Positions 27,468-62,664 of a DNA stretch of 64,000 bases are shown in pieces. The stretch is taken from positions 3,100,001-3,164,000 of the forward strand of contig NZ_CP032279.1 in the NCBI RefSeq assembly GCF_001696615.3. The letters run 5' to 3'. Source of the DNA: Acinetobacter sp. WCHAc010034. Lineage in GTDB: Bacteria > Pseudomonadota > Gammaproteobacteria > Pseudomonadales > Moraxellaceae. The notes under the pieces were generated by a model, which was not told where the DNA came from, did no database searches, and worked only from the letters and a program-made list of their open reading frames with translations. The position numbers were made by a program, and so were the translations under genes. Every line of letters starts with the position of its first letter. The first letter of the stretch is position 1.

Positions 27468-27470
27468 TTT

Positions 27471-34503: not shown

Positions 34504-34516
34504 GGGGATATAAATT

Positions 34517-35311: not shown

Positions 35312-35332
35312 AAACAAGTGGGGACTTAATCC

Positions 35333-36048: not shown

Positions 36049-36122
36049 ACCAGGCTGTTCCATTCTGCTATTCTCCAAACGTTCTATTTCATTCTTCTCA
36101 TGACCTCAGGCATACTGCGGTC

Positions 36123-37769: not shown

Positions 37770-37830
37770 AATTGGTATGGGATTCAGCGGACGCTTACAG
37801 ATATTTGGAGTGAATGGGAGGATAACTTAA

Positions 37831-40109: not shown

Positions 40110-40196
40110 TATCAGAAATCAAATTTTAGATACAGTGGTTCGAGGATTTAAAGAAGTCGAAGACTATTTAAAGTCACAATCTTTAGGTGTTAATAT

Positions 40197-42555: not shown

Positions 42556-42839
42556 TTGGACTGGCTTGCGAAGTACACCGCGGCTTTTTTTAATATGTCC
42601 CTTTCTTCAGTAACTCTTTGCAACTCCTTTTTTAGCTTTGCCAATTCTGAAACTGCATCCCTAGAGTCTGTGATTTTAGGTTCTTGAGGAGCATAACGCT
42701 TGATCCAAGCATAAAGACTATGCGTGGTTGTACCTAAACGTGCGGCAACTTCAGCCACGCTATGACCTTTTTCAGTCACTTGCTTTACTGCTTCAATTTT
42801 GAATTCTTCAGGGTATCGTTTGCTACTGCTCATAAGCAC
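42552..42839 (-). CDS. IS3-family transposase OrfA (element in mod)
   Basis: 95 residues: helix-turn-helix RYPEEFKIEAVKQVTEKGHS and leucine-zipper helix SELAKLKKELQRVTEERD. A run of A's followed by G near the 3' end (about 42578-42585 on the minus strand) is a likely -1 slippery site. Confidence 0.9.
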   Translation of the reverse strand: MLMSSSKRYPEEFKIEAVKQVTEKGHSVAEVAARLGTTTHSLYAWIKRYAPQEPKITDSRDAVSELAKLKKELQRVTEERDILKKAAVYFASQSK

Positions 42840-44056
42840 CTCGTTAATTAGCCATTTTATCTAACTAAAAGGTGTCTACAAAATCGGTGGCTATTCACAC
42901 CTCTGTTAGGACAAGATTATCCATTGGGTGAAACAGAAGATGGGTTGAAGCGAATTTATCCAATAAATTCTCAAAATGAAGAACGAGTCTGGCGATCGTC
43001 CTATGAGACTGGAAAGAGAAGAGTTGAAAATAATGAAATATTTTTAACTGATAGAGGGGCTGTTAAGCAGAAGATTTTCCATGAAGATAAGAGAGAAACG
43101 CTTTTTAGTAACTGGATTGGTACTGATTTCAATGCAGGCACACAAGGAACTAACATACTAGATTCTTTAGGCTTAGGAGGGAAATTTGATTATCCAAAAT
43201 CTATAAAAACCCTTGAATTAACTTTTTGGATGCAATCTTATGGGAAGTCAGATTATCAAATGATTGATTTCTTTGGCGGTTCAGGGACATCTGCTCATGC
43301 TGTTATCAACAATAATAGAGAAGATGACGTAAATAAAACAAGGAAATTCATAGTAATAGAACAAGGTGAGTATTTTGATACAGTCATTAAACCACGTATT
43401 CAAAAGGTCGTTTATGCCTCAGATTGGAAAGATGGTAACCCCCTTAATCCTGAATCCGGCATTAGCCATTGTTTAAAAGTCCTTAAACTTGAAAGCTATG
43501 AAGACACCTTAAATAACCTAGAGTTGGTACGTACTAGCCAACAACAAAAACTATTTGAGGGTTCAGGGCAGGAACGATTCGACCAATATCTCATGAACTA
43601 TATGCTTGAGATCGAAAGCAAAGGTTCATTGCTTAATGTCAAAGATTTCCTAAAACCATTTGACTACCAAATGAATATCACCACAGATAGTGCTGGTGCA
43701 TACGAACGCCGTCATGTGGACTTGGTTGAAACCTTTAACTACCTGATTGGTATGTATGTCGATTATGCCGACTACCAACTTGAAAAAGGTTATGTTCAAA
43801 TCACAGGTCATTTACGTACTGGTGAATACACCACAGTGCTATGGCGTGACTGCGAAAAAATTGGCTACCAAGAACTGGATGCTTTATTAGCAAAGCTTAA
43901 AATTAATCCAAATGACAACGAATACCAACTAATCTATATTAATGGTGACCACAACATTGCCAACCGCTATACCACGCAGGATGGGCAAGAAAAACAACTC
44001 AAAGTGCGTTCAATAGAAAAAGAATTTTTAACGCGTATGTTTGAGGGGGCTTAAAG

Positions 44057-47000
44057 ATGGCAAAGGCAACGAAAACAACACAAAAAGCGGTAAAAGCCAA
44101 TTTTCATGACCAGCTTATTCTAAGCAAATGGTCATGGGCCAAGTTTAATCCAAACTACCTACAAGCCATGCGTGACAGTTTGGATCATCCGCAATTTGAA
44201 GGTATAGAAACTGAAGGACAAGAAGCAGGTCAAACCAAATTTTTTGTCGAACTGACACGAGATTTAGTCGGTAAGCATCATATTGATACCGATACATTGC
44301 GCCGTTATGACTTAAATATTGTCAAACATTGGGAAAGTATTAGTCTTAAGCGTAATGAGATTGAAGGGCAAGTGCTGAATTTAAAGTACTTCCAATATCT
44401 ATCTTTATTGTTCACTGAACTCTATTTGGACCAATATTTTAATCATCAACAGACCATGCTTGATGAGTTAAATCACGCCGTAGCGGAATTTAACCAAGCG
44501 CAAAAGGCGATGAGTGAACAGTTTCAACCTTATGAAGCTGATGACCTCAATAAAATTGCATTTTGGAATGCGACGGGCAGTGGTAAGACACTGCTGATGC
44601 ACGTCAATATTTTGCAATTTTTAGACTATTACCAAGCATCGCACGGTGGGAATAGCTATCCTGAACAAATCATTTTATTGACCCCAAACGAAGGCCTTAG
44701 CCAACAGCATCTTAAAGAGTTTAGAGACTCAGGTCTACATGCCACATTCTTTGATAAGCAAAAGAGTTTTAGTGGTTTGTATCGAAATGAGATCCAGATT
44801 ATCGATATCAATAAACTAGCCGAAAAAGATGGTGATAAAACCGTTGCCGTAGAAACTTTAGAAGGTAAAAATCTAGTCCTGATTGATGAAGGTCATCGAG
44901 GCACCAGTAGTGCTGGTGTATGGATGGAACGTCGTGATGTACTGACACGCAATGGTTTTAGTTTTGAATATTCTGCTACCTTTGGTCAGGCGGTGAGTAA
45001 GGCCGAAAACGTCTATAAACGTTTTGAAGATGTCAAAAAGCAAAAAGCCAAGATGCTGTTTAATGGCACAACATTCTCAAAATTATCTGATGCTCAACTG
45101 GAACAGGTTCAGTTGGATGACTTAGAAAAACAAAAGTTCCGCCGTGAAGCATTACGCGAAGTTTATGCAAAGAGCATTTTGTTTGATTACTCATATCGTT
45201 ACTTCTATGCCGATGGTTATGGTAAAGAAGTCAGCATTCTCAATATGAAAGACTACCAAGCAGAAGATGAGCGCAATCTTTATCTCACTGCTTGTCTCTT
45301 GGGCTTCTACCAACAGCAATATTTGTTTGAAAAAAACAAAACCAAGCTGGCTCAATTTAATATTGAAAAACCGCTATGGGTATTTGTGGGTAACAAGGTC
45401 AATGATGATGATTCTGATATCTTGGCCATCGTAAAATTCTTATCTGAATTTTTAGATCCACAAAACAAAGCCAAAATTATGGGTTGGCTAACAGACTTGA
45501 TTCGTAATACATCACGTTTGGTAGATGCGAATGGCCATAATATTTTCACCAATCGCTTTATTGCTTTGCATGGCCAAGAGCCGGAACAACTCTATCAAGA
45601 GATCTTAAAGCATTTCTTTAATACCACAGCAAACTTACGTTTAAATGTAATTCGTATTACCGCCAACAAAGGCGAATTACGTTTACAGGTCGGTGAAAAT
45701 ACACCTTTTGCAGTGATTAATGTAGGGGATGAAAAAGGCCTCTATGACATGTGCTTAGAGAATGAAAAAACGCATTATCTTAATGCACGTACTGACGACT
45801 TTTCTCCATCGTTATTCCCAACTCTAAATGATGACGACAGCCAAACCCATCTATTAGTTGGTTCGCGTAAGTTTACCGAAGGCTGGAGCAGTTGGCGTGT
45901 GTCTACCATGGGCTTGTTAAACATGGGGACAGGCGAAGGTGCGCAAATTATTCAGCTCTTTGGTCGTGGCGTGCGTTTAAAAGGTGAGAACTTTTCACTG
46001 AAACGAACTCCAAGAGAAATTTGCCAAAAAGCAGAACATAAAGGCCTACATCTAGACCTGATGCAAACGCTGAATATCTTTGGTTTACGTGCGAACTATA
46101 TGGAACAGTTTAAAGCCTACTTAGAAGATGAAGGCATTATTCTGAATCAAGATCTCGTAACCTTAGATTTTCCAACCAATAAAATCCATGCCACACGTTT
46201 AAAAACCTTAGTGCTAAAAGATGGCTATAAGGACAATCAGGCGAATGGATTTAAGGCACAGCGTAAGCTATCAATGTTTGAGATTCCGAAGGAATTTGAA
46301 GGAAAGATCAAACAGCCACATGTGGTATTAGACTTATATCCAAGACTGCAAGCATTACATACCGATAAGTCAAAGCTGAATACAGCAGAATCTGTAGATA
46401 AGCGCCAAACACATGATATCTCGCGAGACATTATGTGCTTATTTGATTTCGACGACATCTATTTACAGTTACAGCAGTATAAATTTCAACGTGGTTATCA
46501 TAACTTGCGTTTATATATTGAAGGTTTACGTGAGTTTTGTGGCCGTGATATGTCATTAAAACAGAATGATTGGTACACCTTGAAGGTGGATGCTTCTGAA
46601 TTAAGCAATGACATGAAAGGTATTCAGAAGCAACAAGGCATTCTGATTGAGCTGTTAAAAGCGTATATGGATAAGTTCTATAACGCGCTTAAAAATGCGT
46701 ATGAAGGTCAATTCTACGAAGTCAAAGAATTTGATCTTAATGATGATGTCTTACCTATTGATATTTGTAAGCAATATACATTAACAGCGAAACCTGATCG
46801 CAATGAAGATGCAGAACTGGCATTTGAACGTTTAGTCGAGCTTAAAGAGTTAGTGGCGAAAGGCGATGTAGAGAAACTTGCGCCTTGGAAACAAGATGGT
46901 AGCTTTAGAGCGATTACGTTTGATCGTCATTTGTTCTATCCACTCTTTGATAAAACAGATGAAAGCCTGCCATTTACATGGTCACCTATGTTGTTTGACT

Positions 47001-47500
47001 ACACCAAAGGTACGCAAAGTAGTGAAGTGAAATTTGTCATGGATCTTCAAGCGTATATTAATCAAGCTAAGCATGTTGAAGAGTTAAAAAACTATAGTCT
47101 GTATTTACTTCGTAATGCTGACAGCAAATATAAAGGTTTAGGTTTTGCCTTGGCGGGTAACTTCTATCCAGACTTTTTATTGTGGTTGGTACATAAAGAA
47201 ACGGGCATGCAGTATTTAACCTTAGTTGATCCAAAAGGTCTACGTAACATGGATCATGATCATGCCAAAATTAAATTGCATCAAGAGATTAAAAGCATTG
47301 AGGCTAAAGTGGGTGATCCAAACTTAGTGCTTAATAGCTTTATTTTGTCGATCACGCCAATGAAGGACATCATCAACAACAGTCTGACGCAGGAAGAATA
47401 TGCGGAGCGCAATGTGCTGTTTATGGTGGGAGATGATCGGACTTATTTGGATCAGTTGTTTGCTAAAATTTTAGAGCAACAGATGAAGTTTGCGGCTTAA
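44057..47500 (+). CDS. res: Type III restriction endonuclease subunit Res
   Basis: 1147 residues. SF2 helicase: Walker A WNATGSGKTLL (about 172-182), DEXX box VLIDEGHRG (about 278), SRKFTEGWSS and QLFGRGVRLKG (motifs V-VI). The C-terminal nuclease domain contains NFYPDFLLWL and LTLVDPKG, the PD-(D/E)XK core. It needs Mod for target recognition in type III systems, so with mod broken it should not restrict. The gene itself appears intact, starting 2 bp after the mod stop. Confidence 0.9.
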   Translation: MAKATKTTQKAVKANFHDQLILSKWSWAKFNPNYLQAMRDSLDHPQFEGIETEGQEAGQTKFFVELTRDLVGKHHIDTDTLRRYDLNIVKHWESISLKRNEIEGQVLNLKYFQYLSLLFTELYLDQYFNHQQTMLDELNHAVAEFNQAQKAMSEQFQPYEADDLNKIAFWNATGSGKTLLMHVNILQFLDYYQASHGGNSYPEQIILLTPNEGLSQQHLKEFRDSGLHATFFDKQKSFSGLYRNEIQIIDINKLAEKDGDKTVAVETLEGKNLVLIDEGHRGTSSAGVWMERRDVLTRNGFSFEYSATFGQAVSKAENVYKRFEDVKKQKAKMLFNGTTFSKLSDAQLEQVQLDDLEKQKFRREALREVYAKSILFDYSYRYFYADGYGKEVSILNMKDYQAEDERNLYLTACLLGFYQQQYLFEKNKTKLAQFNIEKPLWVFVGNKVNDDDSDILAIVKFLSEFLDPQNKAKIMGWLTDLIRNTSRLVDANGHNIFTNRFIALHGQEPEQLYQEILKHFFNTTANLRLNVIRITANKGELRLQVGENTPFAVINVGDEKGLYDMCLENEKTHYLNARTDDFSPSLFPTLNDDDSQTHLLVGSRKFTEGWSSWRVSTMGLLNMGTGEGAQIIQLFGRGVRLKGENFSLKRTPREICQKAEHKGLHLDLMQTLNIFGLRANYMEQFKAYLEDEGIILNQDLVTLDFPTNKIHATRLKTLVLKDGYKDNQANGFKAQRKLSMFEIPKEFEGKIKQPHVVLDLYPRLQALHTDKSKLNTAESVDKRQTHDISRDIMCLFDFDDIYLQLQQYKFQRGYHNLRLYIEGLREFCGRDMSLKQNDWYTLKVDASELSNDMKGIQKQQGILIELLKAYMDKFYNALKNAYEGQFYEVKEFDLNDDVLPIDICKQYTLTAKPDRNEDAELAFERLVELKELVAKGDVEKLAPWKQDGSFRAITFDRHLFYPLFDKTDESLPFTWSPMLFDYTKGTQSSEVKFVMDLQAYINQAKHVEELKNYSLYLLRNADSKYKGLGFALAGNFYPDFLLWLVHKETGMQYLTLVDPKGLRNMDHDHAKIKLHQEIKSIEAKVGDPNLVLNSFILSITPMKDIINNSLTQEEYAERNVLFMVGDDRTYLDQLFAKILEQQMKFAA

Positions 47501-49721: not shown

Positions 49722-49877
49722 ATGGAAATTCAAGATGACAAATTGAATATCGAAGAAGTACAGCAATTAACATCTAAATTAGCATGTGTTAACAGTGTAA
49801 CAATTGATATCAATGAGCGTGAAAAACTAGAACAAGATTTGAATGCTATGTTTGGTCAGTGGTATGAAGGCGACTAA
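49722..49877 (+). CDS. Putative modified-peptide precursor (51 residues)
   Basis: ATG at 49722 is preceded by GAGAGGG. The product is acidic, begins MEIQDDKLNIEEVQQL, has one cysteine (Cys22), a charged helical middle (NEREKLEQDLN) and an aromatic C-terminus FGQWYEGD. It lies 53 bp upstream of a leucine-rich-repeat protein gene, a JmjC-like oxygenase gene and a radical SAM/SPASM gene, the arrangement of a RiPP (ribosomally made, modified peptide) cluster. The N-terminal helix would be the leader and the FGQWY tail the core; this is inference. I know no named class with this set. Confidence 0.65.
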   Translation: MEIQDDKLNIEEVQQLTSKLACVNSVTIDINEREKLEQDLNAMFGQWYEGD

Positions 49878-49930
49878 ATAGCATACTCAGTTAGCCAATG
49901 GTTCATTGGCTAGCTTAGAAGTCTAGTTTT

Positions 49931-51088
49931 ATGATTATCTATAATAGTAATTCGACCACTTCGAGTGGGTTGACACACAGACTGTCTAAAATTCTTAATA
50001 TTGAAGTTTTAGAAGTATCTAAAATTAATTTGGATGAGCCTACTCTTACAGAACTGATTATTTTATTTATTAATGTATCTGGTGAGGAAGAATTAAGCAC
50101 GGAATGGGAGATTCTTCTTAAAAGCCAATTTATAAACAAAAAGAGAGTAGTAGTTTTCCTATTTGGTATTTATGATGATTATATTGATCAAAATTCAATA
50201 ATAGTTAAGCAAATTTATCATTATTTGGAAATGCATAATCAGTATATAAAAATTTTTCCTAAAAAAATATCAAAATTTAATTTAAATGTTAATGAAGTAA
50301 AAGAGTTTATATTATATTTAAAGAGTAAAAATATAGCAGAATATTTATTTCATAAAGAAATATTAAGTTTAACTCATATAAACCAAAAGTTACCAAAAAT
50401 TTATGATGCTGAAACATTGAATTTGACTTGTAATTTTGATGGTTTTTCCAATCTTTTAAATGTAAAAAATATTAATTCATATCAAGTATTGCACCAGATT
50501 TTATTGCTATCTTCGCAAAAAATAATCATTTGTAATAGGGTGGATTTAAGTGGATTTAACTATGAATTAATCGAAAATAATATTTTAGAAAAAATATATT
50601 TTAAATCTTGTTTAATTCAGAACACCCCTAAATTAAGTAATTTTTCTAATCTAAAAACTATTAATTTTTCAGCTAACAAAATTATAGAATTAGAGGTTGA
50701 TAATTTCCCTTCTGGTGTGAAAAGGATTAATTTTTCAAAAAACACTATTAATAAAATTCTATTAGATAAAAGAAAAAACTATCATCATATTGAAAGTTTG
50801 GCATTATTTAACAATAGATTGATTGATTTTGAATGGTTGAATTGTTTTAAAAAAATTAAATACTTAAATATTGGTATGAATCCAATGCTTCATGTACCAG
50901 AGGAAATATTTGGACTAAAGGATATTGAACATCTTAATATAGCTGTAACTAATATTAAATATTTGCCAAAAGAAATACTTGATTTAAACAACCTAAAGAA
51001 ATTAGATATTAAACATTGTGTTAATTTAAGCAGTAATGACTTTGTTTTAAAAAAGTTGATCAGTCGTGGTATTGAGGTTATATGTTAG
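49931..51088 (+). CDS. Leucine-rich-repeat protein with flavodoxin-like N-terminus
   Basis: 385 residues, very AT-rich gene. The N-terminus (MIIYNSNSTTSSGLTHRLSK, then LIILFINVSGEEE and RVVVFLFGIYDDY) reads like a flavodoxin or NrdI fold with an S/T-rich phosphate loop. The second half (about 215-375) has leucine-rich repeats: LKTINFSANKI, VKRINFSKNTI, IESLALFNNRL, IKYLNIGMNP, IEHLNIAVTNIKYLP, LKKLDIKHCVNL. It may bind the precursor peptide or a partner. It overlaps the next gene by 7 bp. Confidence 0.6.
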   Translation: MIIYNSNSTTSSGLTHRLSKILNIEVLEVSKINLDEPTLTELIILFINVSGEEELSTEWEILLKSQFINKKRVVVFLFGIYDDYIDQNSIIVKQIYHYLEMHNQYIKIFPKKISKFNLNVNEVKEFILYLKSKNIAEYLFHKEILSLTHINQKLPKIYDAETLNLTCNFDGFSNLLNVKNINSYQVLHQILLLSSQKIIICNRVDLSGFNYELIENNILEKIYFKSCLIQNTPKLSNFSNLKTINFSANKIIELEVDNFPSGVKRINFSKNTINKILLDKRKNYHHIESLALFNNRLIDFEWLNCFKKIKYLNIGMNPMLHVPEEIFGLKDIEHLNIAVTNIKYLPKEILDLNNLKKLDIKHCVNLSSNDFVLKKLISRGIEVIC

Positions 51089-51972
51089 TTGAAAAAGATT
51101 TAAATAAATTAATAAGGATTCTTAATATTAATGAGATTCATAAATTTAAATTTGAAGAAGATTATAAAAAAATATATTCTTTAGATCAAATGAACTCTGA
51201 TATCAATTTTCAGAATTTAGTCTATCCTTATATTCGATTAAATAATCATAAAAATACAACTTCAAGATTGGATTTTATAGAGAAAACGAATAATAAGCAT
51301 CTAAATAATTTGGAAACAAAATTATCTCTGAAAAGTATCCTATATAGGTTAGCAAAAGGGGATACATTAATAATGGATGGTATAGATGTATTTAACCAAA
51401 ATGTTAGAATATTTTCCCGTGCTTTATCCAATGGATTAAATGCTAAAGTTTCCTCTAATCTTTATTATACATTTCGTGATAATACCGGTATCAATTTACA
51501 TTTTGATCAGCATGATGTGTTGGCAATTCAAATACACGGACAAAAAAAATGGCATTTCGTTAGGAATATTATAGAGGATATATCTAAAAAAAATGATCAT
51601 TCTATCAAGCCAATTTTGGATTCTAATTCAGTAGTTATTGAAACAATTCTTTTGGAAGAGGGTGAATTTTTATTTATTCCAAAAGGAATCTGGCATTATA
51701 CCGAGACAACAGCGGAAAAAAGTTCTTTGCATATTGCTTTTGGTTTAACTCCTCCTAATATTCATGATGTTTTAAATGAATTCATTAGGCAAAAAATAGG
51801 AAAATATGGTCAAACTAATGTCTACGGTTTAGATGAAAAAAAATATCAGTCTGTAGTTGATGAATTAATATCTAAATTAAATGAATCAGTTGATGAAAAA
51901 TTTAATTCTATAGAATTTTCTAATTTTTTAAAAATATACAAAAATCAATATACCAATATTGAATTAATTTAG
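51082..51972 (+). CDS. JmjC/cupin-like Fe(II)/2-oxoglutarate oxygenase
   Basis: 296 residues. The double-stranded beta-helix core shows the metal triad: H and D in NLHFDQHD (about 139-145) and a distal H in GIWHYTET (about 203), with QIHGQKKWHF between and EGEFLFIPKG before. This is the pattern of JmjC-like protein hydroxylases (ribosomal oxygenase type). Next to a precursor-like peptide and a radical SAM enzyme it most likely hydroxylates that peptide. Starts inside the previous gene's end, so co-translated. Confidence 0.78.
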   Translation: MLVEKDLNKLIRILNINEIHKFKFEEDYKKIYSLDQMNSDINFQNLVYPYIRLNNHKNTTSRLDFIEKTNNKHLNNLETKLSLKSILYRLAKGDTLIMDGIDVFNQNVRIFSRALSNGLNAKVSSNLYYTFRDNTGINLHFDQHDVLAIQIHGQKKWHFVRNIIEDISKKNDHSIKPILDSNSVVIETILLEEGEFLFIPKGIWHYTETTAEKSSLHIAFGLTPPNIHDVLNEFIRQKIGKYGQTNVYGLDEKKYQSVVDELISKLNESVDEKFNSIEFSNFLKIYKNQYTNIELI

Positions 51973-51990
51973 CAGGATTAAAAAGATTTA

Positions 51991-53049
51991 ATGAAACAAA
52001 TTTATTTAATTATTACAAAAAAATGTAATTTATCCTGTAATTTCTGCATAAGAGACTATGAATATAATGTAGATAATAGTCTATCTATACCAGATTATGA
52101 TCTTATTATTGAGAGATTAAAGCAATATTGGCATACATCTAATTTTATTATTTCAGGTGGTGAACCTACTGTTCATAAAAATTTTACTTACTTTTTAAAA
52201 AAGGCATGTGAAAAGTTCAAAAAAGTTAGTATCAATACCAATGGGACAAATAAATATTTTTCTACGACAAAATTTAAAGAGATTATTGAGCATTATAAAG
52301 TAAGAATACAATTTTCAATTGATGGTGCTCAAATTGTACATGATCAAATACGTGGCAAGGGTAATTATCAAAAAACTTTAAATAATATTCAGATTTGTAA
52401 GACTTATAAAAATGCTGAAATTATTGTTTCCACAACTGTATCAAATGCTAATTTTATGAGTAATTTTGTTGATCTATATAGAGATCTAGAGGATTACGTT
52501 TCAATCTGGAATATTAAAAGAGTTTCATACTCTGGGGAAGCAAGTAGTGATGATTTTGATTATTTAAGTAATAATCAATGGAATGAAATTGTTGATAAAG
52601 TCAAAAGTTTAGATTCTAAAAATATTATCAATATTCAAAAAATGTATGATTTTGAACCTTTGGAAAAAATAGATGACACAATACTATCATATGTAGAATC
52701 CAATGTAATAAAAAATTGTGGCAGTGGTACTTCAAAAATATATATTTATCCCAATTTAGATGTTTTAGCTTGTACTTGTTATGAAAAAAAACCATCTGGA
52801 AATCTAAAGTATCAAGATATAAATAATATTATTTCATCTGCCAAGCACTTAAAAGTATCAGCTCATCAGATTGATCACCCGATTTGTAATAGTTGTCGAT
52901 ATAAAAAACTTTGTAATGGTGGGTGTTTAGGTGCTGGGTTTTATTCTTCGGGTTCTTTAAATGAACCAGATGTTAAATGTCCAAAGATATTCGATTTTAA
53001 TCAAACTAGTTCTGATAATTCCCTGAAAATTTCATTTATTCAAATTTAG
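51991..53049 (+). CDS. Radical SAM/SPASM peptide-modifying enzyme
   Basis: 352 residues. Radical SAM cluster site KKCNLSCNFC (Cys12, Cys16, Cys19) and ISGGEPTVH (SAM-binding). C-terminal SPASM-type cysteines: NCGSGTSK, LACTCY, HPICNSCRYKKLCNGGCLGAG and VKCPKI, binding auxiliary 4Fe-4S clusters. Such enzymes make C-C, C-S or C-O crosslinks in RiPP precursors. 18 bp after the oxygenase; 22 bp before the helicase gene. Confidence 0.88.
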   Translation: MKQIYLIITKKCNLSCNFCIRDYEYNVDNSLSIPDYDLIIERLKQYWHTSNFIISGGEPTVHKNFTYFLKKACEKFKKVSINTNGTNKYFSTTKFKEIIEHYKVRIQFSIDGAQIVHDQIRGKGNYQKTLNNIQICKTYKNAEIIVSTTVSNANFMSNFVDLYRDLEDYVSIWNIKRVSYSGEASSDDFDYLSNNQWNEIVDKVKSLDSKNIINIQKMYDFEPLEKIDDTILSYVESNVIKNCGSGTSKIYIYPNLDVLACTCYEKKPSGNLKYQDINNIISSAKHLKVSAHQIDHPICNSCRYKKLCNGGCLGAGFYSSGSLNEPDVKCPKIFDFNQTSSDNSLKISFIQI

Positions 53050-53071: not shown

Positions 53072-56000
53072 ATGTCTGCAACCTTATTTTGGAAATTATC
53101 CAATCAAGACCATGTTAATCAACGTTTAAAAAAAAATTTAGATCATATTATTAAGTTTAAACCTGAATTAGCAAAACTATTTGAGGATGTTGAAGATAAA
53201 TTAGGTCGTTTTTTATCATTGTTTTTTACGACCATTGAAATCCCACCTCCAGGCTATGTCGCAAACTTATCATTAGAGGATAAATCTTTCCAAAAGATAA
53301 ATCTTTCTTTACGTATTCCAGAACATCCTGAATTTCGTGAATATCTTGATATCCATAGTACGATTGCAGTAATTGGCTATTGGAACTTGACGACGAGCTC
53401 ACCATGGTTTACACCTGAAAAAATTATGGTCACGCATAATGATATAGAAGCAACTGAATATGAACACGAGATTGAGTGTGCTTATAAACAACTTGATGGA
53501 GATAAGTTTCCTGACCGAAATGTTACGAATGTGTTAAACCGTCAGCTAGCAAACGATTTACCTAAAATTTCCGTTTTAACAAGTCAAAGACTTGAAAATT
53601 GGTCCTCATTTCTACAATTTAAACGTCGGTTAATTCGTCAAAAAACCATAGGCTTACGTTATATTGGATATGATTACGATCATAAAAATAGCCAATTAAA
53701 ACTGTTAGTAGCAGCTCCAAATGCCGCTTATTTAGAAAAAGCAAGGAGAGGGTTCTTACGCCAAAACTTACAATTATTTGATCTGAATATTTCAGAAAAT
53801 GATTGGAAATTCGCTTTACCAGAGCTTGATAATGATAAAAAACCACAAAAATCGAGTTTAGAGTTAGGACAGGTTTCACGCGGAAAGAAAACTCTTGAGA
53901 TTGTCCATTTTTCTAAGCTGAGTTCAATCCAGCATCAAACAATGCAAGAGTCAGAGTTTCCTTTTAATCAGGCGACATATGCTTGGTTGCGTGTTGATAT
54001 TAGTGAAGATTGGAAAAATAGACTCGATGCAATTGATACTGAATCAACTGATGAAGAAACTTTGTTTAATAATCAAGAAATTTTAGGCAAATTTATTAAA
54101 AATATTCCAGATCAGGGATTTATATCTTTTTCACTTGTAGGTGATTGGGCGCTTATTAAGCGTCAGGAACGTAGTATTCGTAATCTTAAACAAAACGAAA
54201 ATTGTTATTCTCCATATTTGTCGAGTTATTTATTCGATATTACTCAAGCCAAAGAACCCCGTCAAATTCAAGAAGTGGACCATTGGTACAATGAGCAATT
54301 AAATCCTGCTCAGCAGAGTGCTGTCAAAAAAATGTTATCAGCACCAGACTTATGCTTGATCCAAGGGCCACCTGGTACAGGAAAAACTACAGTCATTGCA
54401 GAAGCTATTCTTCAATTTGCAAAAGAAGGACAAACCGTGTTGCTTGCAAGTCAAGCGCATGATGCGATTGATAATGCCTTATCACGGATTAAAAACAAAC
54501 CTGAATTACGTGCGATTCGTTTAGCAAAAGAGAGTCGTGGTCGTAGTAAAATTACAGATGAGGGTAAACAATTTGCAGGTGAGCAAGCACTTGCTCGGCA
54601 TTATGATGCTTTAGCTGAAGATATTGATCAGCGTTTCTTGAGGCCTTTGCGCGAGAAAAAAAGTAACATTGATCAATTAAAAAAATGGCTAGAGCAAGCC
54701 GAATTTTTGCTACTAGATATTCAAAATGCTGAAAAGAAGTTATTAAAAATTAAAGAAGATGGCATTCATCATGCTGAATTATTGAAATTTGAGAAGCAAA
54801 AATACGATCAAGAGCTACAAAAATATGATCAAAAATTGCATTTAAAACAAGAATTAGTTCAGTTATCTTCTTTTCTAACACAGAGTGGCCCAGCACCTCA
54901 AAATATACAACTACCGCAAGAAACTCATGTTTTAGCTGAAATATTGTTTTTGATGTCTCAAGCAAATGTGAATGTACCATTTAGCTGGAATGACTTTAAA
55001 TTTAATCCTACATCTCAAATGCTGATATTAAATGCTCTATTTGATATTTGGTCACAGCTTGAAGCTAATTTAGAGCAAATAACTAACGATATTCAGCGTT
55101 TGAATCAAGCGGGTCAAGGTGGTTTAGTGAGTATCGAAACACAAGTGCGTATATATGATTTGACTCAAGAAATTAATCGTTTATTTGATCAAATAGAAAT
55201 AGATGACTCAGATGAGGTTGTTGAATTATGGAAAAGTAAACGTCGAGAATTGAGAGAGTTAAAACTGGGTTCTGATGGGTTAACACATCCATGTTATACA
55301 CTATTTAATGATTCAGAACGATATGTACGTATCGATGATGCGAGAGAACTTTCTCAAATTTTAAGCAGTCGTTTGGAAGTGTTAAAAGGTATAAAGAAAG
55401 AATTTCATAGTAATTTGTCAATAATTTTAATTGGCTTAAATAATACGATAGCTCAGATTGATACATCGGTACCTAATGGTGAGAGTGTAAAGTATGAGCA
55501 GGCACAAGTAGATGCTCTGCGTGAGCAGTATCAATTGCTACAGACGCATTACCGTGCTTTAAATAATAAGCGAGATGAACATCTCCAATTACAAAATTTT
55601 GCCTCTAGTTTTGATTTTGCATCAGCATTAAATGCGACTAAACAACATTTACAGACTTTAGAAATAGAATTTAACAATTTGTGTGAACGTAATCAGGCGT
55701 GGCAACCAGTATTTGAGCAATGGAGAGCAATTCTTCAAGAGGAAGATCAGGCGAATCAAGATTGGGAACAATTACAGGACATTTACCCTGCAAATTGTAA
55801 TTTGGTTGCGATTTCTTGTAACGAAAGAGAGCAAACACTGACAGAGGCTGGACTCGATGGCTTTGATGTGGTGATTATTGACGAAGTATCAAAAGCAACA
55901 CCTTTAGAACTATTATTACCACTGATGCGAGCGCGTAAAGCTATTTTAGTGGGTGATCATCGACAATTACCTCCATTATTTCAAGAAAGTCAGGATGTCT

Positions 56001-56908
56001 CCAATACCTTAGAAGATATGGTAAACGAAGAGATGGAAGAAGGTAAAAGTGATACGTTGCTAACCAAAGAAAACTTTGAACGTTATGAAAAACTGGTGAC
56101 GGCATCCTTGTTTAAAGAGCTTTTTGAGAAAGCACCTGAAAGTTTACGTGAACGTTTAACTGTACAATTTCGTATGCACCCACAAATCATGAAAATGATT
56201 AACTGTTTTTATGACAATCAATTGACGTATACGGAAGAACCAAAAGACCATCAGCATTTTTTGACGTTCAAGAGTAAATATAATGATTTAGTTACATCAG
56301 ATAAACATTTGCTTTGGGTCGATACATCCTATGATGAAAAAGGAATAGCATGCTGTGATGATGATCGTACAAATATCACTGAAGCAAAATTGATCGCTCA
56401 GGCTTTAGTCAGGATTAATCAGCAAATGCGACAAAATGGCTTTAATGTGAAAGCTCCAAAAGGTAAACAGAAAGTAGGTATTGTTTCATTTTATCAAGCT
56501 CAATGTCGTGTCATTCGTGAAGCAATTAAAAATATAAATCAGGGTAATCTGAAATTTGATGCTATTGATGTAGAAATTAATACAGTGATTCGTTATCAAG
56601 GTAAAGAAAAGCCAATTATTTTAATTAGTCTTGTACGAAATGATGGTAAGGAGAAAACATATCATCGTCGTGGTTCTAATGCCAACATAGCGAGATTTGA
56701 ATTTATCAATGTTGCGATGTCTCGGGCTCAGGATTTACTCATGGTGTTTGGTGCAAGGAATATGTTGGAAATGCGGGACGTTATTTTGCCAAATATGGAT
56801 AAAGATGGATCTAGTACAAAGAAAGTATATAAAGATATTTTTGAAAGACTTGATCGTGAGGCTCGTATTTGCTCCGTCAAAGAATTTATGCAGGCATGCT
56901 CAAATTAA
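53072..56908 (+). CDS. SF1 (UPF1/DNA2-like) helicase of five-gene system
   Basis: 1278 residues. Walker A IQGPPGTGKTT (about 429-439) and motif Ia LLASQAHDA, then about 450 residues of coiled-coil insertion, then DEXX VVIIDEVSKATP (about 932-943), VGDHRQLPP (motif III), TVQFRMHPQ (motif IV) and NVAMSRAQDL (motif VI). The N-terminal 400 residues have no recognised domain. It is a superfamily 1 DNA or RNA helicase, the large motor of the putative system. Base composition is less AT-rich than the preceding four genes. Confidence 0.88.
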   Translation: MSATLFWKLSNQDHVNQRLKKNLDHIIKFKPELAKLFEDVEDKLGRFLSLFFTTIEIPPPGYVANLSLEDKSFQKINLSLRIPEHPEFREYLDIHSTIAVIGYWNLTTSSPWFTPEKIMVTHNDIEATEYEHEIECAYKQLDGDKFPDRNVTNVLNRQLANDLPKISVLTSQRLENWSSFLQFKRRLIRQKTIGLRYIGYDYDHKNSQLKLLVAAPNAAYLEKARRGFLRQNLQLFDLNISENDWKFALPELDNDKKPQKSSLELGQVSRGKKTLEIVHFSKLSSIQHQTMQESEFPFNQATYAWLRVDISEDWKNRLDAIDTESTDEETLFNNQEILGKFIKNIPDQGFISFSLVGDWALIKRQERSIRNLKQNENCYSPYLSSYLFDITQAKEPRQIQEVDHWYNEQLNPAQQSAVKKMLSAPDLCLIQGPPGTGKTTVIAEAILQFAKEGQTVLLASQAHDAIDNALSRIKNKPELRAIRLAKESRGRSKITDEGKQFAGEQALARHYDALAEDIDQRFLRPLREKKSNIDQLKKWLEQAEFLLLDIQNAEKKLLKIKEDGIHHAELLKFEKQKYDQELQKYDQKLHLKQELVQLSSFLTQSGPAPQNIQLPQETHVLAEILFLMSQANVNVPFSWNDFKFNPTSQMLILNALFDIWSQLEANLEQITNDIQRLNQAGQGGLVSIETQVRIYDLTQEINRLFDQIEIDDSDEVVELWKSKRRELRELKLGSDGLTHPCYTLFNDSERYVRIDDARELSQILSSRLEVLKGIKKEFHSNLSIILIGLNNTIAQIDTSVPNGESVKYEQAQVDALREQYQLLQTHYRALNNKRDEHLQLQNFASSFDFASALNATKQHLQTLEIEFNNLCERNQAWQPVFEQWRAILQEEDQANQDWEQLQDIYPANCNLVAISCNEREQTLTEAGLDGFDVVIIDEVSKATPLELLLPLMRARKAILVGDHRQLPPLFQESQDVSNTLEDMVNEEMEEGKSDTLLTKENFERYEKLVTASLFKELFEKAPESLRERLTVQFRMHPQIMKMINCFYDNQLTYTEEPKDHQHFLTFKSKYNDLVTSDKHLLWVDTSYDEKGIACCDDDRTNITEAKLIAQALVRINQQMRQNGFNVKAPKGKQKVGIVSFYQAQCRVIREAIKNINQGNLKFDAIDVEINTVIRYQGKEKPIILISLVRNDGKEKTYHRRGSNANIARFEFINVAMSRAQDLLMVFGARNMLEMRDVILPNMDKDGSSTKKVYKDIFERLDREARICSVKEFMQACSN

Positions 56909-56951: not shown

Positions 56952-59063
56952 ATGAATACCCCATTGATTCAAACTAAAGTATGGCTACCAATTTATAAAG
57001 TAGAGTCTGCTATCCGTTATCAATCAATTCGTAAACCTACAGTTTTTGAAGCATTACTTTTAAACCTTACCGTACAGCATCAACAAAAATTAGGCGATTT
57101 TAATTTGGAGCAAATTTGCGAAGTTTTTAAAATCGAACAGAATTTTTTAGCAAATGCCTTAGAAACCATGGTGAATAATGATGTGTTGGAAAGCGTTTCT
57201 GGTTATCTAAAAGATATAAAAGTTAAACAGCTTAAGATCACTAAATTAGGGCGAGATCTTTTTCATAAAAATGAAATGCCTTCTACCCCCAAAACAGAGG
57301 CAGTTCCTTGTCACTATGACCCATTGCTTCAAAATTTAGTGAAAGCTAAAAATCACTGGGCAAAATATAAGAGTGACGAACAAATTACATTATCTAAAGA
57401 CATTTTCCCTGCAAATTTAGATCAAATTGGTCAATTAATTGATGATATTGTTAATAGTGCAGATGAAAAGACATTTGCATGGAAAAAACCTAATGTTAAA
57501 GTCACTCAAATTCAAAATGAAATAGAACGAATTATTTGGCAGGATTTGGCTGTAGAAATTAGTTTAGATCAAAATGCAAATATAGATGTCCATGCACTTG
57601 GAGATGGTGAGAGTGCTTCAAAATTTTCAGCATGGTTCAAACAGGCTGAACCAGAAGTACTTTGGGATAATATTATTTCATCAGTATTTCAAACAGTAGA
57701 AAATGATTTACCAAAAATAGATTGGCAGCAAGTCCTTGGGGTGAGTTTACCTGAGAATGAATTGAAAATGTCTTCTGCGAAAGTAAGTGTATATTTAAAT
57801 GAGAGCCCAAATCAGGTTGTACAGGGATATGAAATTATTTTATCTCAAAAATGCTTAGTCCCTAAGATCAGTGGTAAAACTTTAACTATTCCAATGCTTT
57901 TTAATCCCGTATCTGGATTTCGAGCATTGTATGTTGATCAAAATCTTGAAAGTTCAGTTGTGTTTCAAGGTAATACTGAAATATATCATGCCAAACAGCC
58001 TAGAGAAGTTGCATTACAATTACGGTTAAAGGATCAGGGGATATGGGATAAATTAAAAACAAGATTGTTGCAATTGATCAATGTCAATCAATTGATACCC
58101 TTGGTCTTTGCTCGATGCTTTTTATCTGAATCTCAACTAATTGGATATGCTCCTTTATTGACTGCTAAGCAAGCTTACAGTCTGCATGAGGACATGATAA
58201 AAACCCATAAAGTCGGTCTAGAAAATATATTATGGAAAGATAAAATTCAAACCTTGGAAACAATGGAAGATCTCAATTATTTTAGAAAGATTTTCCCAAA
58301 TGTTGAATTGAAGAAAATTTGGCTAGATTCAGCCTTACTGACACAAGTTTTGGATACAGCTTTTGAAAAAGGTAGCATCTCTAAGACGGAATTTGATCCA
58401 ATTCTTGAACCATTGATTAAAGTTAATAAAGATTTGAATAGCAGAATCCACCAGGACTTGCTTAAACAAGTTATTGCTCATCAGAAAATGGATATTAGTA
58501 AAATTGCTGCAAAAGATATGACCGTACTTGATCATTGGTTAGATGTTTATGAGCAGGCAAACCAAAAAATTCCTGATCTAATCAAAGACTGTAAAAAAAT
58601 CCATCAACAATTTATTGGAATAACTTTATTAAAACAACAAATTGAACAGCATTTTGCACCTAAACGCGAAGATAATAAATCAGTGGCCATTTTAGATTCT
58701 TGTTATTTAATGGATTTTAGTGATCGCGTAAAAGAAATTATTAAAGATAATTTTGTTATTATCCCTCAAATTGTTATAACTGAATTAGAAGGAAATAAAT
58801 TAAGTAAAGATCAAGAAAAAGCTTATAAGGCAAGGGAAGCGATAAGGGTTATAAAGGATTTACCACATGAACATATAGAGCCAAGTCGGTTGGAATTAAG
58901 TCATTTTATTAACAAAAGCCAAAACCATACTGGGCTAAGTAATGATGAACAAATTCTATCGGTTGCATTATATCATCGTTTAAATTCGGCTAAATTGTAT
59001 AGCCGTGATAATAGCCTCTGTAATTTAGCTAAGTCAGTTAATGTGAAAACTCAGAATAATTAA
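56952..59063 (+). CDS. PIN-domain protein of five-gene system
   Basis: 703 residues. The C-terminal ~125 residues are a PIN-type nuclease domain with the acidic set: AILDSCYLMD (Asp about 580), ITELEGNK (Glu about 611), NDEQILSVAL (Asp about 663) and LYSRDNSL (Asp about 685). The N-terminal ~570 residues are helical and unrecognised. PIN domains cut RNA, so this could be the effector of the system. 43 bp after the helicase. Confidence 0.82.
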   Translation: MNTPLIQTKVWLPIYKVESAIRYQSIRKPTVFEALLLNLTVQHQQKLGDFNLEQICEVFKIEQNFLANALETMVNNDVLESVSGYLKDIKVKQLKITKLGRDLFHKNEMPSTPKTEAVPCHYDPLLQNLVKAKNHWAKYKSDEQITLSKDIFPANLDQIGQLIDDIVNSADEKTFAWKKPNVKVTQIQNEIERIIWQDLAVEISLDQNANIDVHALGDGESASKFSAWFKQAEPEVLWDNIISSVFQTVENDLPKIDWQQVLGVSLPENELKMSSAKVSVYLNESPNQVVQGYEIILSQKCLVPKISGKTLTIPMLFNPVSGFRALYVDQNLESSVVFQGNTEIYHAKQPREVALQLRLKDQGIWDKLKTRLLQLINVNQLIPLVFARCFLSESQLIGYAPLLTAKQAYSLHEDMIKTHKVGLENILWKDKIQTLETMEDLNYFRKIFPNVELKKIWLDSALLTQVLDTAFEKGSISKTEFDPILEPLIKVNKDLNSRIHQDLLKQVIAHQKMDISKIAAKDMTVLDHWLDVYEQANQKIPDLIKDCKKIHQQFIGITLLKQQIEQHFAPKREDNKSVAILDSCYLMDFSDRVKEIIKDNFVIIPQIVITELEGNKLSKDQEKAYKAREAIRVIKDLPHEHIEPSRLELSHFINKSQNHTGLSNDEQILSVALYHRLNSAKLYSRDNSLCNLAKSVNVKTQNN

Positions 59064-60223: not shown

Positions 60224-62068
60224 ATGCAAACTCCATATATAAATTCTTGGTTAGATAATTTTCAACGCCAGTCATTGATTCGACGTGCAATCGTTATATC
60301 CGGCAATATTATAGATCTATCTTTTTCTGCTATGCGGGAATTAAAACCTATTAATCAGATTATTACTGAAACATTAAAAAATCAGGGTTTCCAGCATGTT
60401 GTTTACTACTCACGTGTTGGAGGGATTTCGGGAATTTCTCCTGAGCAATGGTCAGATTTACAAAATATTGGTCACCAACAGGATGATTTTGGTGGAGATG
60501 AATATGATATGGGAGAGTCGAGCCCAAATCATGCACAGCAACAAAATGTTGGACAAACAGAACTCACGCCGAAAGATTTTTTCGCTGTTGCAGAACAGGT
60601 TGTCTTAAAATCTAAATTAAAAGTTGCGTTTGTTGTAGATTGGTCCAATTATCTTTTTGGGCAAGTAAATAGCTTAAGTGATGCTGAAAGGGCGTGGCTG
60701 CAACAGATCTCGAAAAGTATCCGTGATGCTGAACTGAACATGAGTGCAACAGAAATGGATAAGCCGCAAAGTCTATTCATATTTCTTTGCTCTGGTGCCA
60801 CAGTGTTACCTCCAAGTCTTTATTTGAATAATCCTTTATTTAGCGAAGTAAATATTCCATTGCCAAGTATTACAGAACGGGAGCAAGTTATCTCTTCGTT
60901 TAACTTTGTCTTTCAAGTTCAAGAAGAGCTTAGTCCTTCAAGTCAAGGATTGAGAGATTTTGTGACTTTAACAGATGGATTAACGATTCGTGATATCTAT
61001 AATATGGCAAGGTTATCACGTCAACAAAATGAAACTTTATCAATAAATAATCTTGTATCACTCTATCAGTATGGCAAGCGTCAATCTCCTTGGGAGCAGC
61101 TAAATCATGCGAAGCTGAAGGATACTAAAAATAAGCTAAAACTAAGAGTAAAGGGACAGGATCAGGCTGTTGATGCTGTGAATAAAATTTTGATACGTGC
61201 TTATACAGGGTTATCAGGATTACAGCATTCAGCAAAAGCAAAAACACCAAAAGGAGCCTTATTTTTTGTGGGGCCTACAGGTGTTGGTAAAACTGAATTA
61301 GCGAAAGCTTTAGCAGAATTTTTGTTTGGGGATGAAGAAGCATGCATCCGCTTTGATATGTCTGAGTTTAATCATGAACATGCTGATCAGCGTTTAGTTG
61401 GAGCTCCTCCTGGTTATGTTGGTTATGAGCAAGGGGGGCAATTGACGAATGCCGTAAAATCACGCCCATTTTCATTGTTACTATTCGATGAAATCGAGAA
61501 AGCACATCCACGTATTTTAGACAAGTTTCTTCAAATTCTAGAAGATGGTCGTTTGACAGATGGTAAAGGCGAAACAATATCATTCTCTGATACGTTTATT
61601 GTTTTTACTTCGAACATTGGTGCCAGTGATATCGTTCCTTCATCACCTGAAAATGTAGCTGAACAATTCAAAATTGCCGTCCAGACTCATTTCAAAAAAG
61701 AGCTTAAACGTCCAGAATTATTGGGTCGTATTGGTGAAGCGAACATCATTCCATTTAATTTTATGGAAGATGACAATATTCTTAAGAATATTGCAAGAGC
61801 TAAACTTAAGCCATTGGAAAACCGTTTAATTGAAAAATGGAAGATCAATGCGTTCGTTTTTGAAAATGAAGATAAAGCATTACAAACTTTAGTTGATAAA
61901 GTAAATAGACAGCATGGTGGTCGTGGTGTATTGAATGTGCTAACGAAGGAATTATTTGACCCCTTGGCAGACTTCTTATTTACACATGTTCAGCATGCTG
62001 AGCAACTGAAGAATAGAACTATACGTGTGATTCAGGCAGGTAAGTCTTTTGATTTTGATATTATCTAA
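60224..62068 (+). CDS. ClpB-like AAA+ ATPase of five-gene system
   Basis: 614 residues. The C-terminal half is a ClpB/ClpA type-2 AAA+ module: Walker A VGPTGVGKTEL (about 347-357), FDMSEFNHEH, GAPPGYVGYEQGG (pore loop), Walker B LLLFDEIEKAHP (about 417-428), sensor-1 FTSNIGASD and the small domain RPELLGRIGE. The N-terminal half looks like a degenerate AAA domain (RRAIVISGNIIDL, LKVAFVVDWSNY). It could remodel the partner proteins or an invader complex. Confidence 0.88.
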   Translation: MQTPYINSWLDNFQRQSLIRRAIVISGNIIDLSFSAMRELKPINQIITETLKNQGFQHVVYYSRVGGISGISPEQWSDLQNIGHQQDDFGGDEYDMGESSPNHAQQQNVGQTELTPKDFFAVAEQVVLKSKLKVAFVVDWSNYLFGQVNSLSDAERAWLQQISKSIRDAELNMSATEMDKPQSLFIFLCSGATVLPPSLYLNNPLFSEVNIPLPSITEREQVISSFNFVFQVQEELSPSSQGLRDFVTLTDGLTIRDIYNMARLSRQQNETLSINNLVSLYQYGKRQSPWEQLNHAKLKDTKNKLKLRVKGQDQAVDAVNKILIRAYTGLSGLQHSAKAKTPKGALFFVGPTGVGKTELAKALAEFLFGDEEACIRFDMSEFNHEHADQRLVGAPPGYVGYEQGGQLTNAVKSRPFSLLLFDEIEKAHPRILDKFLQILEDGRLTDGKGETISFSDTFIVFTSNIGASDIVPSSPENVAEQFKIAVQTHFKKELKRPELLGRIGEANIIPFNFMEDDNILKNIARAKLKPLENRLIEKWKINAFVFENEDKALQTLVDKVNRQHGGRGVLNVLTKELFDPLADFLFTHVQHAEQLKNRTIRVIQAGKSFDFDII

Positions 62069-62079
62069 AGGCTAATGAC

Positions 62080-62664
62080 ATGGCTTGGATAAATTTAGCA
62101 AAAATTATTGAGGTAACCGAAGCTGAGGGACCTGGATTGCGTACAGCAATCTGGGTACAAGGCTGTCTAAAACGCTGTAAAGGATGCTGTAATGGTCAGT
62201 TTCTAAAAATACAACCAGCTGAACTGGTTCCAGTTAAAGAAGTGATGTCAAGGATTAAAGCTGCAAAAGAAAAGTATCAGATAGAGGGTATTACTTTGTT
62301 AGGCGGGGAGCCTTTTTTACAAGCAGAAAGTCTATCACAACTTGCCGAGTTTGCACATCAATTAGACTTGTCTGTTATGGTATTTACGGGATACTTACTA
62401 GAAGAATTAACAGAAATAAAATTCCGAGGAGCAACTCAACTTATTGCTGCGACAGATGTGCTCGTTGATGGAGAATATGAGATAGAAAATACTGAGATTG
62501 TAAGAAATTGGGTTGGTTCAACTAATCAGAGATTTCATTATCTAAGTGAGTTTTATAATTCTGAAATAGAAACAAGAGAGTTATCTGTGACCAATGAATG
62601 GCGCATTGATCACAGCGGTAATATTATTGGTAATGGTCTCCCTTTTATTTTAAGAACAAAGTAA
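62080..62664 (+). CDS. NrdG-like radical SAM protein of five-gene system
   Basis: 194 residues. Cluster motif GCLKRCKGCCN (Cys29, Cys33, Cys36), GPGLRTAIWVQGC before it and ITLLGGEPFLQ after it, the pattern of single-domain radical-activating enzymes such as NrdG or organic-radical activases. No glycyl-radical enzyme is encoded nearby, so its target is likely another protein of the system. Last gene of the array, 11 bp after the AAA+ gene. Confidence 0.85.
   Translation: MAWINLAKIIEVTEAEGPGLRTAIWVQGCLKRCKGCCNGQFLKIQPAELVPVKEVMSRIKAAKEKYQIEGITLLGGEPFLQAESLSQLAEFAHQLDLSVMVFTGYLLEELTEIKFRGATQLIAATDVLVDGEYEIENTEIVRNWVGSTNQRFHYLSEFYNSEIETRELSVTNEWRIDHSGNIIGNGLPFILRTK

What the first reader, a model, noticed from the sequence alone, without database searches (positions are those of the whole stretch)
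49722..53049. Unclassified RiPP-like cassette inside a defence island
Seen directly: a 51-residue acidic peptide with an aromatic tail, a leucine-rich-repeat protein, a JmjC-like oxygenase with an H-x-D...H triad, and a radical SAM enzyme with SPASM cysteines, all co-directional, with overlaps or gaps of 53 bp or less, in DNA markedly more AT-rich than both sides. Known: SPASM enzymes and Fe/2-oxoglutarate enzymes modify RiPP precursors. Inference: the peptide is doubly modified (radical crosslink plus hydroxylation). I recall no named RiPP class or defence system with this set.
Basis: partly seen in the sequence, partly recalled or inferred. Interest (0 to 1): 0.88.

Follow-up and report, generated by a model that had tools for sequence, protein, structure and literature searches.

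The report
Modified-peptide cassette joined to phage defence
Four neighbouring genes, a short peptide plus two enzymes likely to modify it and a helper protein, form a conserved unnamed cassette that in several unrelated bacteria sits beside the same predicted anti-virus gene set, hinting that bacteria may use a chemically altered peptide as a part of their immune machinery.

Summary
A 51-aa acidic peptide (49722-49877), an LRR protein, a JmjC oxygenase and a radical SAM/SPASM enzyme lie co-directional in DNA of 25% GC, against 35-36% on both sides. No named family was found for the peptide. The unit is probably larger than the coordinates given. Five further genes follow at 11-43-bp gaps: Mokosh-like helicase, PIN protein, coiled-coil-like protein, ClpB-like AAA+, NrdG-like activase. 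These genes adjoin the cassette, or what the contig holds of it, in two Acinetobacter genomes and 4 of 7 distant relatives, in five layouts, and 0 of 72 other radical-SAM loci. Best reading: the peptide is cross-linked and probably hydroxylated, stays in the cell, and works as a component or trigger of the defence module. Chemistry and defence function are inferred, not shown.

The parts
49722..49877 (+). precursor-like peptide, 51 aa, C-terminus AMFGQWYEGD (motif G-x-W-x-E-x-D)
   Evidence: ORF and SD-like site; short ORFs with the motif upstream of the enzymes in L003-L008; 93 database proteins at E<=10, 28 at E<=1e-3, 91 of 93 with the motif
49886..49918 (+). stem-loop between peptide and LRR genes, possibly setting a higher peptide dose (inference)
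   Evidence: 12-bp stem in the fold of 49870-49935, -18.4 kcal/mol, z -2.36, 7 of 200 shuffles as good; not listed as a terminator
49931..51088 (+). LRR protein with a weakly predicted N-terminal alpha/beta domain
   Evidence: Pfam LRR_8; model: LRR part pLDDT blocks mostly 85-94, N-terminal 110 residues 49-76
51082..51972 (+). JmjC_2 Fe(II)/2-oxoglutarate oxygenase
51991..53049 (+). radical SAM/SPASM peptide maturase-like enzyme
   Evidence: Pfam, cysteines, sub-cutoff NCBIfam hits led by PapB, DynA, MftC
53072..56908 (+). SF1 (IGHMBP2/Mokosh MkoA-like) helicase, first gene of the module
   Evidence: PADLOC MkoA 340 bits; Pfam AAA_11/AAA_12; NCBIfam IGHMBP2-family 198 bits, below cut-off
56952..59063 (+). 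PIN-domain protein
   Evidence: Pfam PIN_4; PADLOC MkoB only 25 bits
59085..60200 (+). coiled-coil-like protein (my reading of the sequence), no family
   Evidence: no Pfam (E 0.01), PADLOC (E 0.001) or NCBIfam (E 1e-5) match; present in each module copy read
60224..62068 (+). ClpB/ClpA-like AAA+ ATPase (PADLOC PDC-M37B, 106 bits)
62080..62664 (+). NrdG-like radical SAM activase-like protein (C29-x3-C-x2-C)
   Evidence: NCBIfam NrdG 101.8 bits, cut-off 126.1; Pfam Fer4_12; motif

Best explanation
The four genes are a conserved RiPP-like cassette. The ribosomally made peptide has a variable N-terminal leader and a fixed C-terminal F-G-x-W-x-E-x-D. The SPASM radical SAM enzyme acts on that core, most likely by cross-linking the Trp (for example Trp to the Glu two residues on). 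The JmjC enzyme, built like protein hydroxylases, probably hydroxylates a core residue. The LRR protein is a scaffold, leader-binding or receptor subunit. The cassette itself encodes no exporter or leader protease, so the product probably stays in the cell. In Acinetobacter it is made from what looks like one nine-gene operon together with a helicase / PIN nuclease / coiled-coil-like / ClpB-like AAA+ / NrdG-like module, and there it serves as a component, trigger or inhibitor of that antiviral machine. Shown by sequence: conservation of the set, the fixed core, the recurring adjacency. Inferred: modification, its chemistry, cytosolic action, defence role.
For: Short ORF with G-x-W-x-E-x-D upstream of the enzymes in 6 of 7 distant relatives (L003-L008); the seventh, L002, keeps only the rSAM. 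Among 33 non-redundant peptides G, W, E and D are fixed in 33 of 33 and F in 32 of 33, while most leader columns vary. JmjC and LRR genes with it in L003-L007. Two gene orders: peptide-LRR-JmjC-rSAM (window, L003, L004, L006) and peptide-rSAM-JmjC-ORF-LRR (L005, L007). Module genes beside the cassette in the window, L004, L005 and L007, beside the lone rSAM in L002, and beside the rSAM end at which the G155 contig stops: five layouts, three rSAM clades. Control: module genes near 4 of the 7 top relatives and 0 of the other 72 rSAM loci of the same scan, flanks up to 8 kb, p 2e-5. Background: coiled-coil-like gene in 0 of 243 other genomes of the order and 3 of 172 other Acinetobacter. JmjC fold nearest to NO66/MINA53/YcfD protein hydroxylases.
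Against: No chemistry or phage assay was possible. Module without this cassette: G275, Polaromonas, Moellerella, Leisingera, and two plasmids with other radical SAM genes. Cassette without the module: L003, L006 (and peptide + rSAM in L008); their genomes gave only matches to the AAA half of the AAA+ protein. So neither strictly needs the other. The cassette's GC (0.253) differs from the module's (0.351), so the Acinetobacter pairing may be recent. Numbers are small (seven distant loci); counting only loci with the motif ORF the link is weaker (3 of 6 against 1 of 73, p 1e-3), and in Acinetobacter without the window's own genome p is 0.017. The motif statistic is partly built in, since database candidates share 5-residue words with the query alignment. 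Co-residence in defence islands alone can give adjacency.
Confidence: 0.6

Rival explanations
1. A secreted RiPP (bacteriocin-like) cluster that merely shares mobile defence islands; the LRR protein is its immunity factor.
For: RiPP clusters are reported near or co-expressed with defence systems (PMC12715929 passages; PMC11118758 passages). L003 and L006 carry the cassette without the module. An integrase gene follows the module in the window.
Against: None of the four cassette genes is a transporter or protease (not searched for elsewhere in the genome); core fixed from Acinetobacter to Shewanella and Thiotrichaceae, unlike typical antagonistic peptides (general knowledge); adjacency to one particular module in five layouts, 4 of 7 against 0 of 72.
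Confidence: 0.17
2. A peptide-derived redox cofactor or electron carrier (like PQQ or mycofactocin) used by an enzyme elsewhere or by the NrdG-like protein.
For: Fixed core, no exporter in the cassette, and sub-cutoff similarity to the mycofactocin maturase (86 bits window, 109 bits P0023).
Against: Scores far below the cut-off of 265; I noticed no dehydrogenase among the genes read (not searched systematically); the core does not show the MftA or PqqA signatures as I recall them; defence neighbours.
Confidence: 0.1
3. A toxin-antitoxin-like unit: the peptide is harmful or inert according to its modification, and stabilises the island.
For: Small acidic peptide in a tight operon on an island with an integrase; stem-loop after the peptide gene.
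Against: Two enzymes acting on a fixed core would be unusual for addiction (general knowledge); LRR and JmjC have no PADLOC match at E 0.001; sporadic presence says nothing either way.
Confidence: 0.08

Closest known systems
SPASM radical SAM RiPP maturases (PapB, DynA, MftC, SkfB)
   Same: Radical SAM + SPASM architecture, gene beside a short precursor; top NCBIfam hits; SkfB is the only PDB sequence match
   Different: The hits shown lie far below the curated cut-offs (PapB 96.8 against 340); different precursor core
Triceptide / three-residue cyclophane RiPPs (recalled)
   Same: Trp followed two residues later by a fixed Glu would fit an aromatic-x-x crosslink motif
   Different: No model named as cyclophane-forming among the 25 of 70 NCBIfam hits shown; crosslink untested; different accessory genes
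Biphenomycin-type RiPPs (JmjC BipG/BpmG; PMC12707348, PMC12257519, passages seen)
   Same: A JmjC hydroxylase and a radical SAM enzyme belong to one RiPP pathway
   Different: Those use a B12 radical SAM, an MNIO, an arginase and a transporter, and make an antibiotic; in the passages I saw no LRR or defence module
Mokosh (MkoA/MkoB in PADLOC)
   Same: Downstream helicase matches MkoA at 340 bits
   Different: PIN protein matches MkoB at only 25 bits; three further module genes and the peptide cassette
vWA-MoxR-FtsH ternary conflict systems with a radical SAM and a predicted peptide effector (PMC7159879, section 21 read)
   Same: Idea of a radical-SAM-modified peptide effector in an immune-like operon with AAA+ proteins
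   Different: No vWA, MoxR or double FtsH among the Pfam hits here; different nuclease/helicase core and different cassette
QatABCD (a gene set for it lies in this window)
   Same: Recalled, not from a call: modification of a protein or peptide inside a defence system
   Different: Unrelated enzymes; separate genes

Membership tests
RiPP (general) | short precursor gene with variable leader and conserved core | tested here: met
RiPP (general) | modifying-type enzymes encoded beside it, conserved with it | tested here: met
   rSAM in 6 of 6 motif loci outside the window (they were found through it), JmjC in 5 of 6
RiPP (general) | peptide is actually modified | not testable with these tools
   needs MS
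RiPP recognition element | beta3-alpha3 leader-binding domain | tested here: inconclusive
   not evident in the JmjC model's secondary structure; LRR N-terminus low confidence; rSAM cysteine motif starts at residue 12, leaving no room N-terminally
PapB ranthipeptide maturase | NCBIfam NF047865 cut-off 340 bits | tested here: not met
   96.8 bits
PapB ranthipeptide | Cys thioether donor in the core | tested here: not met
   window core AMFGQWYEGD has no Cys; its only Cys is in the leader (sequence)
Mycofactocin | MftC model cut-off 265 bits | tested here: not met
   86.2 bits window, 108.7 P0023
Dynobactin | DynA model cut-off 450 bits | tested here: not met
   86.5 bits
Three-residue cyclophane (triceptide) | aromatic-x-x crosslink | not testable with these tools
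   W-x-E fixed in 33 of 33 peptides, bond unknown
JmjC protein hydroxylase (NO66/MINA53/YcfD type) | HxD...H triad in a JmjC fold | tested here: met
Mokosh | MkoA + MkoB pair | tested here: inconclusive
   MkoA 340 bits, MkoB 25 bits
Prokaryotic viperin (pVip) | radical SAM of the viperin family | tested here: inconclusive
   PADLOC pVip 61 bits for the rSAM, but no viperin model among the 25 of 70 NCBIfam hits shown and SPASM cysteines invariant
FtsH ternary conflict system | vWA + MoxR + double-FtsH genes | tested here: not met
   no vWA domain in the Pfam hits of cassette or module proteins and the AAA+ protein is Clp-like, with one weak AAA_3 hit; definition

The most novel reading that the evidence does not exclude
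A cross-linked, hydroxylated peptide that never leaves the cell is a working part of an antiviral nuclease-helicase machine, and such peptide-modifying cassettes are exchangeable plug-ins: the same module carries the GxWxExD cassette in several lineages, a different 33-aa peptide with two radical SAM enzymes in Photobacterium toruni, and GxWxExD peptides also sit beside a McrBC-like pair in a Bacillota genome and a candidate helicase/PLD system in Pseudomonas.
Probability: 0.35. Interest if true: 0.92.

Novelty: new variant of a known kind. Interest (0 to 1): 0.78.

Why it matters
RiPPs are mostly known as secreted antagonists, signals or cofactors. A fixed-core modified peptide built into an intracellular defence operon would be a new use of peptide chemistry in immunity, would make the prediction of radical-SAM-modified peptide effectors (PMC7159879) directly testable in a compact operon, and would add a RiPP family recognisable by a simple motif (FGxWxExD) with JmjC and LRR partners.

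Tried and rejected
Chance ORF: rejected. Viperin: the rSAM has a 61-bit PADLOC pVip hit, but its SPASM cysteines are invariant and the top NCBIfam hits are led by peptide maturases; I set it aside, CTP chemistry is untested. Phage origin: no phage record matched the JmjC at E 1e-5 or rSAM relative P0031 at 1e-15; the 80 viral loci were weak, mostly partial rSAM hits with no other cassette gene and no motif ORF, and were dropped. Plasmid copies of the cassette: only distant rSAM or JmjC hits under 60% identity, none for LRR, none for P0031 or P0050 at 1e-25. A core DNA pattern (the Pseudomonas-type core with its HCD tail) gave no viral contig. L163 (G063, E 8e-34, one in-frame stop, no cassette genes) was dropped. 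The 72 other loci served only as controls. E. coli: 0 of 5,426 genomes held the Moellerella AAA+/activase stretch at 80% cover; the listed hits are Clp genes. Prevalence of the rSAM, centre genome included: 3 of 299 in the family at E 1e-30 (G063 among them), 1 of 369 (class), 1 of 390 (order), 2 of 175 (genus) at 1e-50, 1 of 87, 1 of 169 and 1 of 79 around L007, L003 and L005 at 1e-45: rare and patchy. LRR fold search: the 50 matches listed are mostly LRR proteins of many functions. JmjC hit P0122 shares only its first 37 residues; ignored. LRR N-terminal fold unresolved. Literature: ten searches; in their listings I saw no paper describing this gene set; most subscription papers are missing from the library and it says it holds no bioRxiv preprints, so this is weak evidence.
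Full report
What is there. The window lies in a 3.6-Mb contig of an Acinetobacter genome: genome G297, given as the same genus, has a 71,326-base contig, the length of the Acinetobacter sp. WCHA55 plasmid record that carries the same module. The peptide gene has a strong SD-like site. A 12-bp stem-loop follows it; the stretches after the peptide genes of L006 and L005 also fold better than most shuffles (1 and 2 of 200 as good). It was not listed as a terminator.

Is it conserved? The radical SAM protein has 105 relatives at E<=1e-10 and the JmjC 17 at E<=1e-5, one of them spurious. A scan of one genome per species kept 79 loci. The seven best are L002 (Lentisphaerae MAG), L003 (Pseudomonas japonica), L004 (Halopseudomonas oceani), L005 (Colwellia ponticola), L006 (Thiotrichaceae MAG), L007 (Shewanella) and L008 (Anaeromassilibacillus). 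Six of the seven (all but L002) have, just upstream of the enzyme genes, a short ORF containing MFGSWREAD, MFGMWKEAD, MFGLWKEAD, SFGSWREWD, TFGSWFEAD or RMGDWREAD at or near its C-terminus. L002 has only the rSAM; close upstream lies an ORF that reads, by eye, like an unrelated ABC-transporter ATPase. A profile of the seven peptides found 93 proteins at E<=10, 28 of them at E<=1e-3; 91 of 93 carry .G.W.E.D, two do not (P0126, which lacks the Trp, and P0214, which lacks the core). Reduced to 33 at 70% identity, G, W, E and D are fixed in 33 and F in 32, whereas the two x positions and most leader columns vary. Caveat: candidates were gathered by shared 5-residue words, so motif bias is built in. 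An independent check is that among 18,270 ORFs of 30-120 aa in all 2.57 Mb of loci then held, the motif near the C-terminus occurs only in the six cassette loci and five overlapping copies of them. The window peptide has no Pfam or NCBIfam match at E 0.01. Ten relatives gave only three weak Pfam hits, below cut-off, in two of the peptides (E 0.06-0.1), and six relatives none in NCBIfam at the strict limit of 1e-15.

What comes with it. JmjC genes lie in L003-L007 and LRR genes in L003-L007 (the LRR proteins are only 19-28% identical to the window's), so the quartet is complete in 5 of 7. Two orders exist: peptide-LRR-JmjC-rSAM (window, L003, L004, L006) and peptide-rSAM-JmjC-unknown ORF-LRR (L005, L007). 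L008 has the peptide and three radical SAM genes; no JmjC or LRR was found there. This suggests that the radical SAM enzyme is the one acting on GxWxExD and that JmjC and LRR are partners of the proteobacterial branch (inference).

The neighbouring module. Downstream of the window cassette, at gaps of 22, 43, 21, 23 and 11 bp, follow a Mokosh MkoA-like helicase, a PIN protein, an unclassified coiled-coil-like protein, a ClpB-like AAA+ and an NrdG-like radical SAM protein. The same five genes adjoin the rSAM end at which the G155 contig stops (L191), the lone rSAM of L002 (L187), and the cassettes of L004 (L185) and L005 (L186); in L007 the contig ends inside the PIN gene, so its helicase is not seen (L188). 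The layouts differ: before the helicase on the same strand (window, G155), divergent with about 2 kb and one 459-aa ORF between (L004), convergent through rSAM with 98 bp between the ORFs (L002; 168 bp between the matches), convergent through LRR (L005), and after the activase on the same strand (L007). These loci fall in three rSAM clades (support 95/98 for L002-L004, 100/100 for L005 and L007, 99/97 for window and L006). Of the 79 radical SAM loci of the scan, with up to 8 kb of flank, module genes lie near 4 of the 7 top relatives and 0 of the other 72 (Fisher p 2e-5). Counting only loci with the motif ORF it is 3 of 6 against 1 of 73 (p 1e-3). The coiled-coil-like gene is otherwise rare: own genome only among 244 of the order, 4 of 173 Acinetobacter, two of these with the cassette rSAM (p 4e-4, or 0.017 without the window's genome). 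The genomes of L003, L006 and L008 gave only matches to the AAA half of the AAA+ protein, as Clp proteins would.

Results against tight coupling. The module stands without this cassette in G275 and in Polaromonas, Moellerella and Leisingera plasmids (short ORFs were listed beside the three plasmid copies only). In a Photobacterium toruni plasmid it stands beside a different set: a 33-aa ORF ending SCAPGDCNPVN and two radical SAM genes. In the WCHA55 plasmid it is followed by a kinase-like gene and a radical-SAM-like gene that lacks the usual N-terminal cysteines. So the module and peptide cassettes look like separable parts that are often combined.

Other defence neighbours. L003: PADLOC candidate genes PDC-M27B and PDC-M27C; L008: a 1002-aa AAA protein (PDC-M26A, 89 bits) with a DUF2357/PDDEXK protein, a pair I read as McrBC-like; L004: JukA- and BrxL-type genes. 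L006 shows housekeeping genes (read from the ORFs by eye). In the window: a GmrSD-type HEC-05 gene before the peptide. Thus 6 of 7 distant loci, all but L006, have known or candidate defence genes beside them; no random-neighbourhood control was made for this count.

What is known. PMC7159879 (section 21 read; passages) predicted a radical SAM enzyme modifying a peptide effector in FtsH ternary systems. PMC11118758 and PMC12715929 (passages) report RiPP clusters near or co-expressed with defence systems. PMC12710340 (passages) notes bacterial JmjC homologues in RiPP-like contexts. I saw no description of this set in the listings of ten searches of an open library. Hence: a new RiPP-like family, and a new variant of the known idea of modified peptides in conflict systems.

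Noticed in passing
window 32704-40940: QatA, QatB, QatC and QatD matches (PADLOC), with three ORFs in DNA of higher GC (35333-37769) between qatB and qatC, perhaps an inserted element.
   Followed up: partly
window 41683-44054: The type III methylase ORF 42924-44054 matches only the C-terminal part of its model (678-1053 of 1057), next to a minus-strand integrase-core ORF: mod looks interrupted or truncated, while res (44057-47500) matches nearly its whole model.
   Followed up: partly
window 24906-29399: MmeI-like type IIG restriction enzyme followed by a DEAD-box helicase gene.
   Followed up: no
window 62719-63735: Phage-type integrase on the minus strand right after the module, suggesting the edge of a mobile island.
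   Followed up: no
L197 2574-4807: Photobacterium toruni plasmid: 33-aa ORF ending SCAPGDCNPVN with two radical SAM genes, divergent from the same five-gene module; a possible second type of peptide cassette. No other plasmid record has this radical SAM at E 1e-20.
   Followed up: partly
L196 15910-17892: WCHA55 plasmid: kinase-like gene, radical-SAM-like gene without the N-terminal CxxxCxxC, and a 162-aa ORF directly after the module.
   Followed up: partly
L005 9827-10534 and L007 6233-6955: Extra 235-240-aa ORF without Pfam match between JmjC and LRR in the swapped-order cassettes.
   Followed up: no
L164 2699-3592: A small E. coli plasmid carries a JmjC-like cupin gene next to an ABC transporter ATP-binding gene and a hypothetical ORF, perhaps another peptide cluster.
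   Followed up: no
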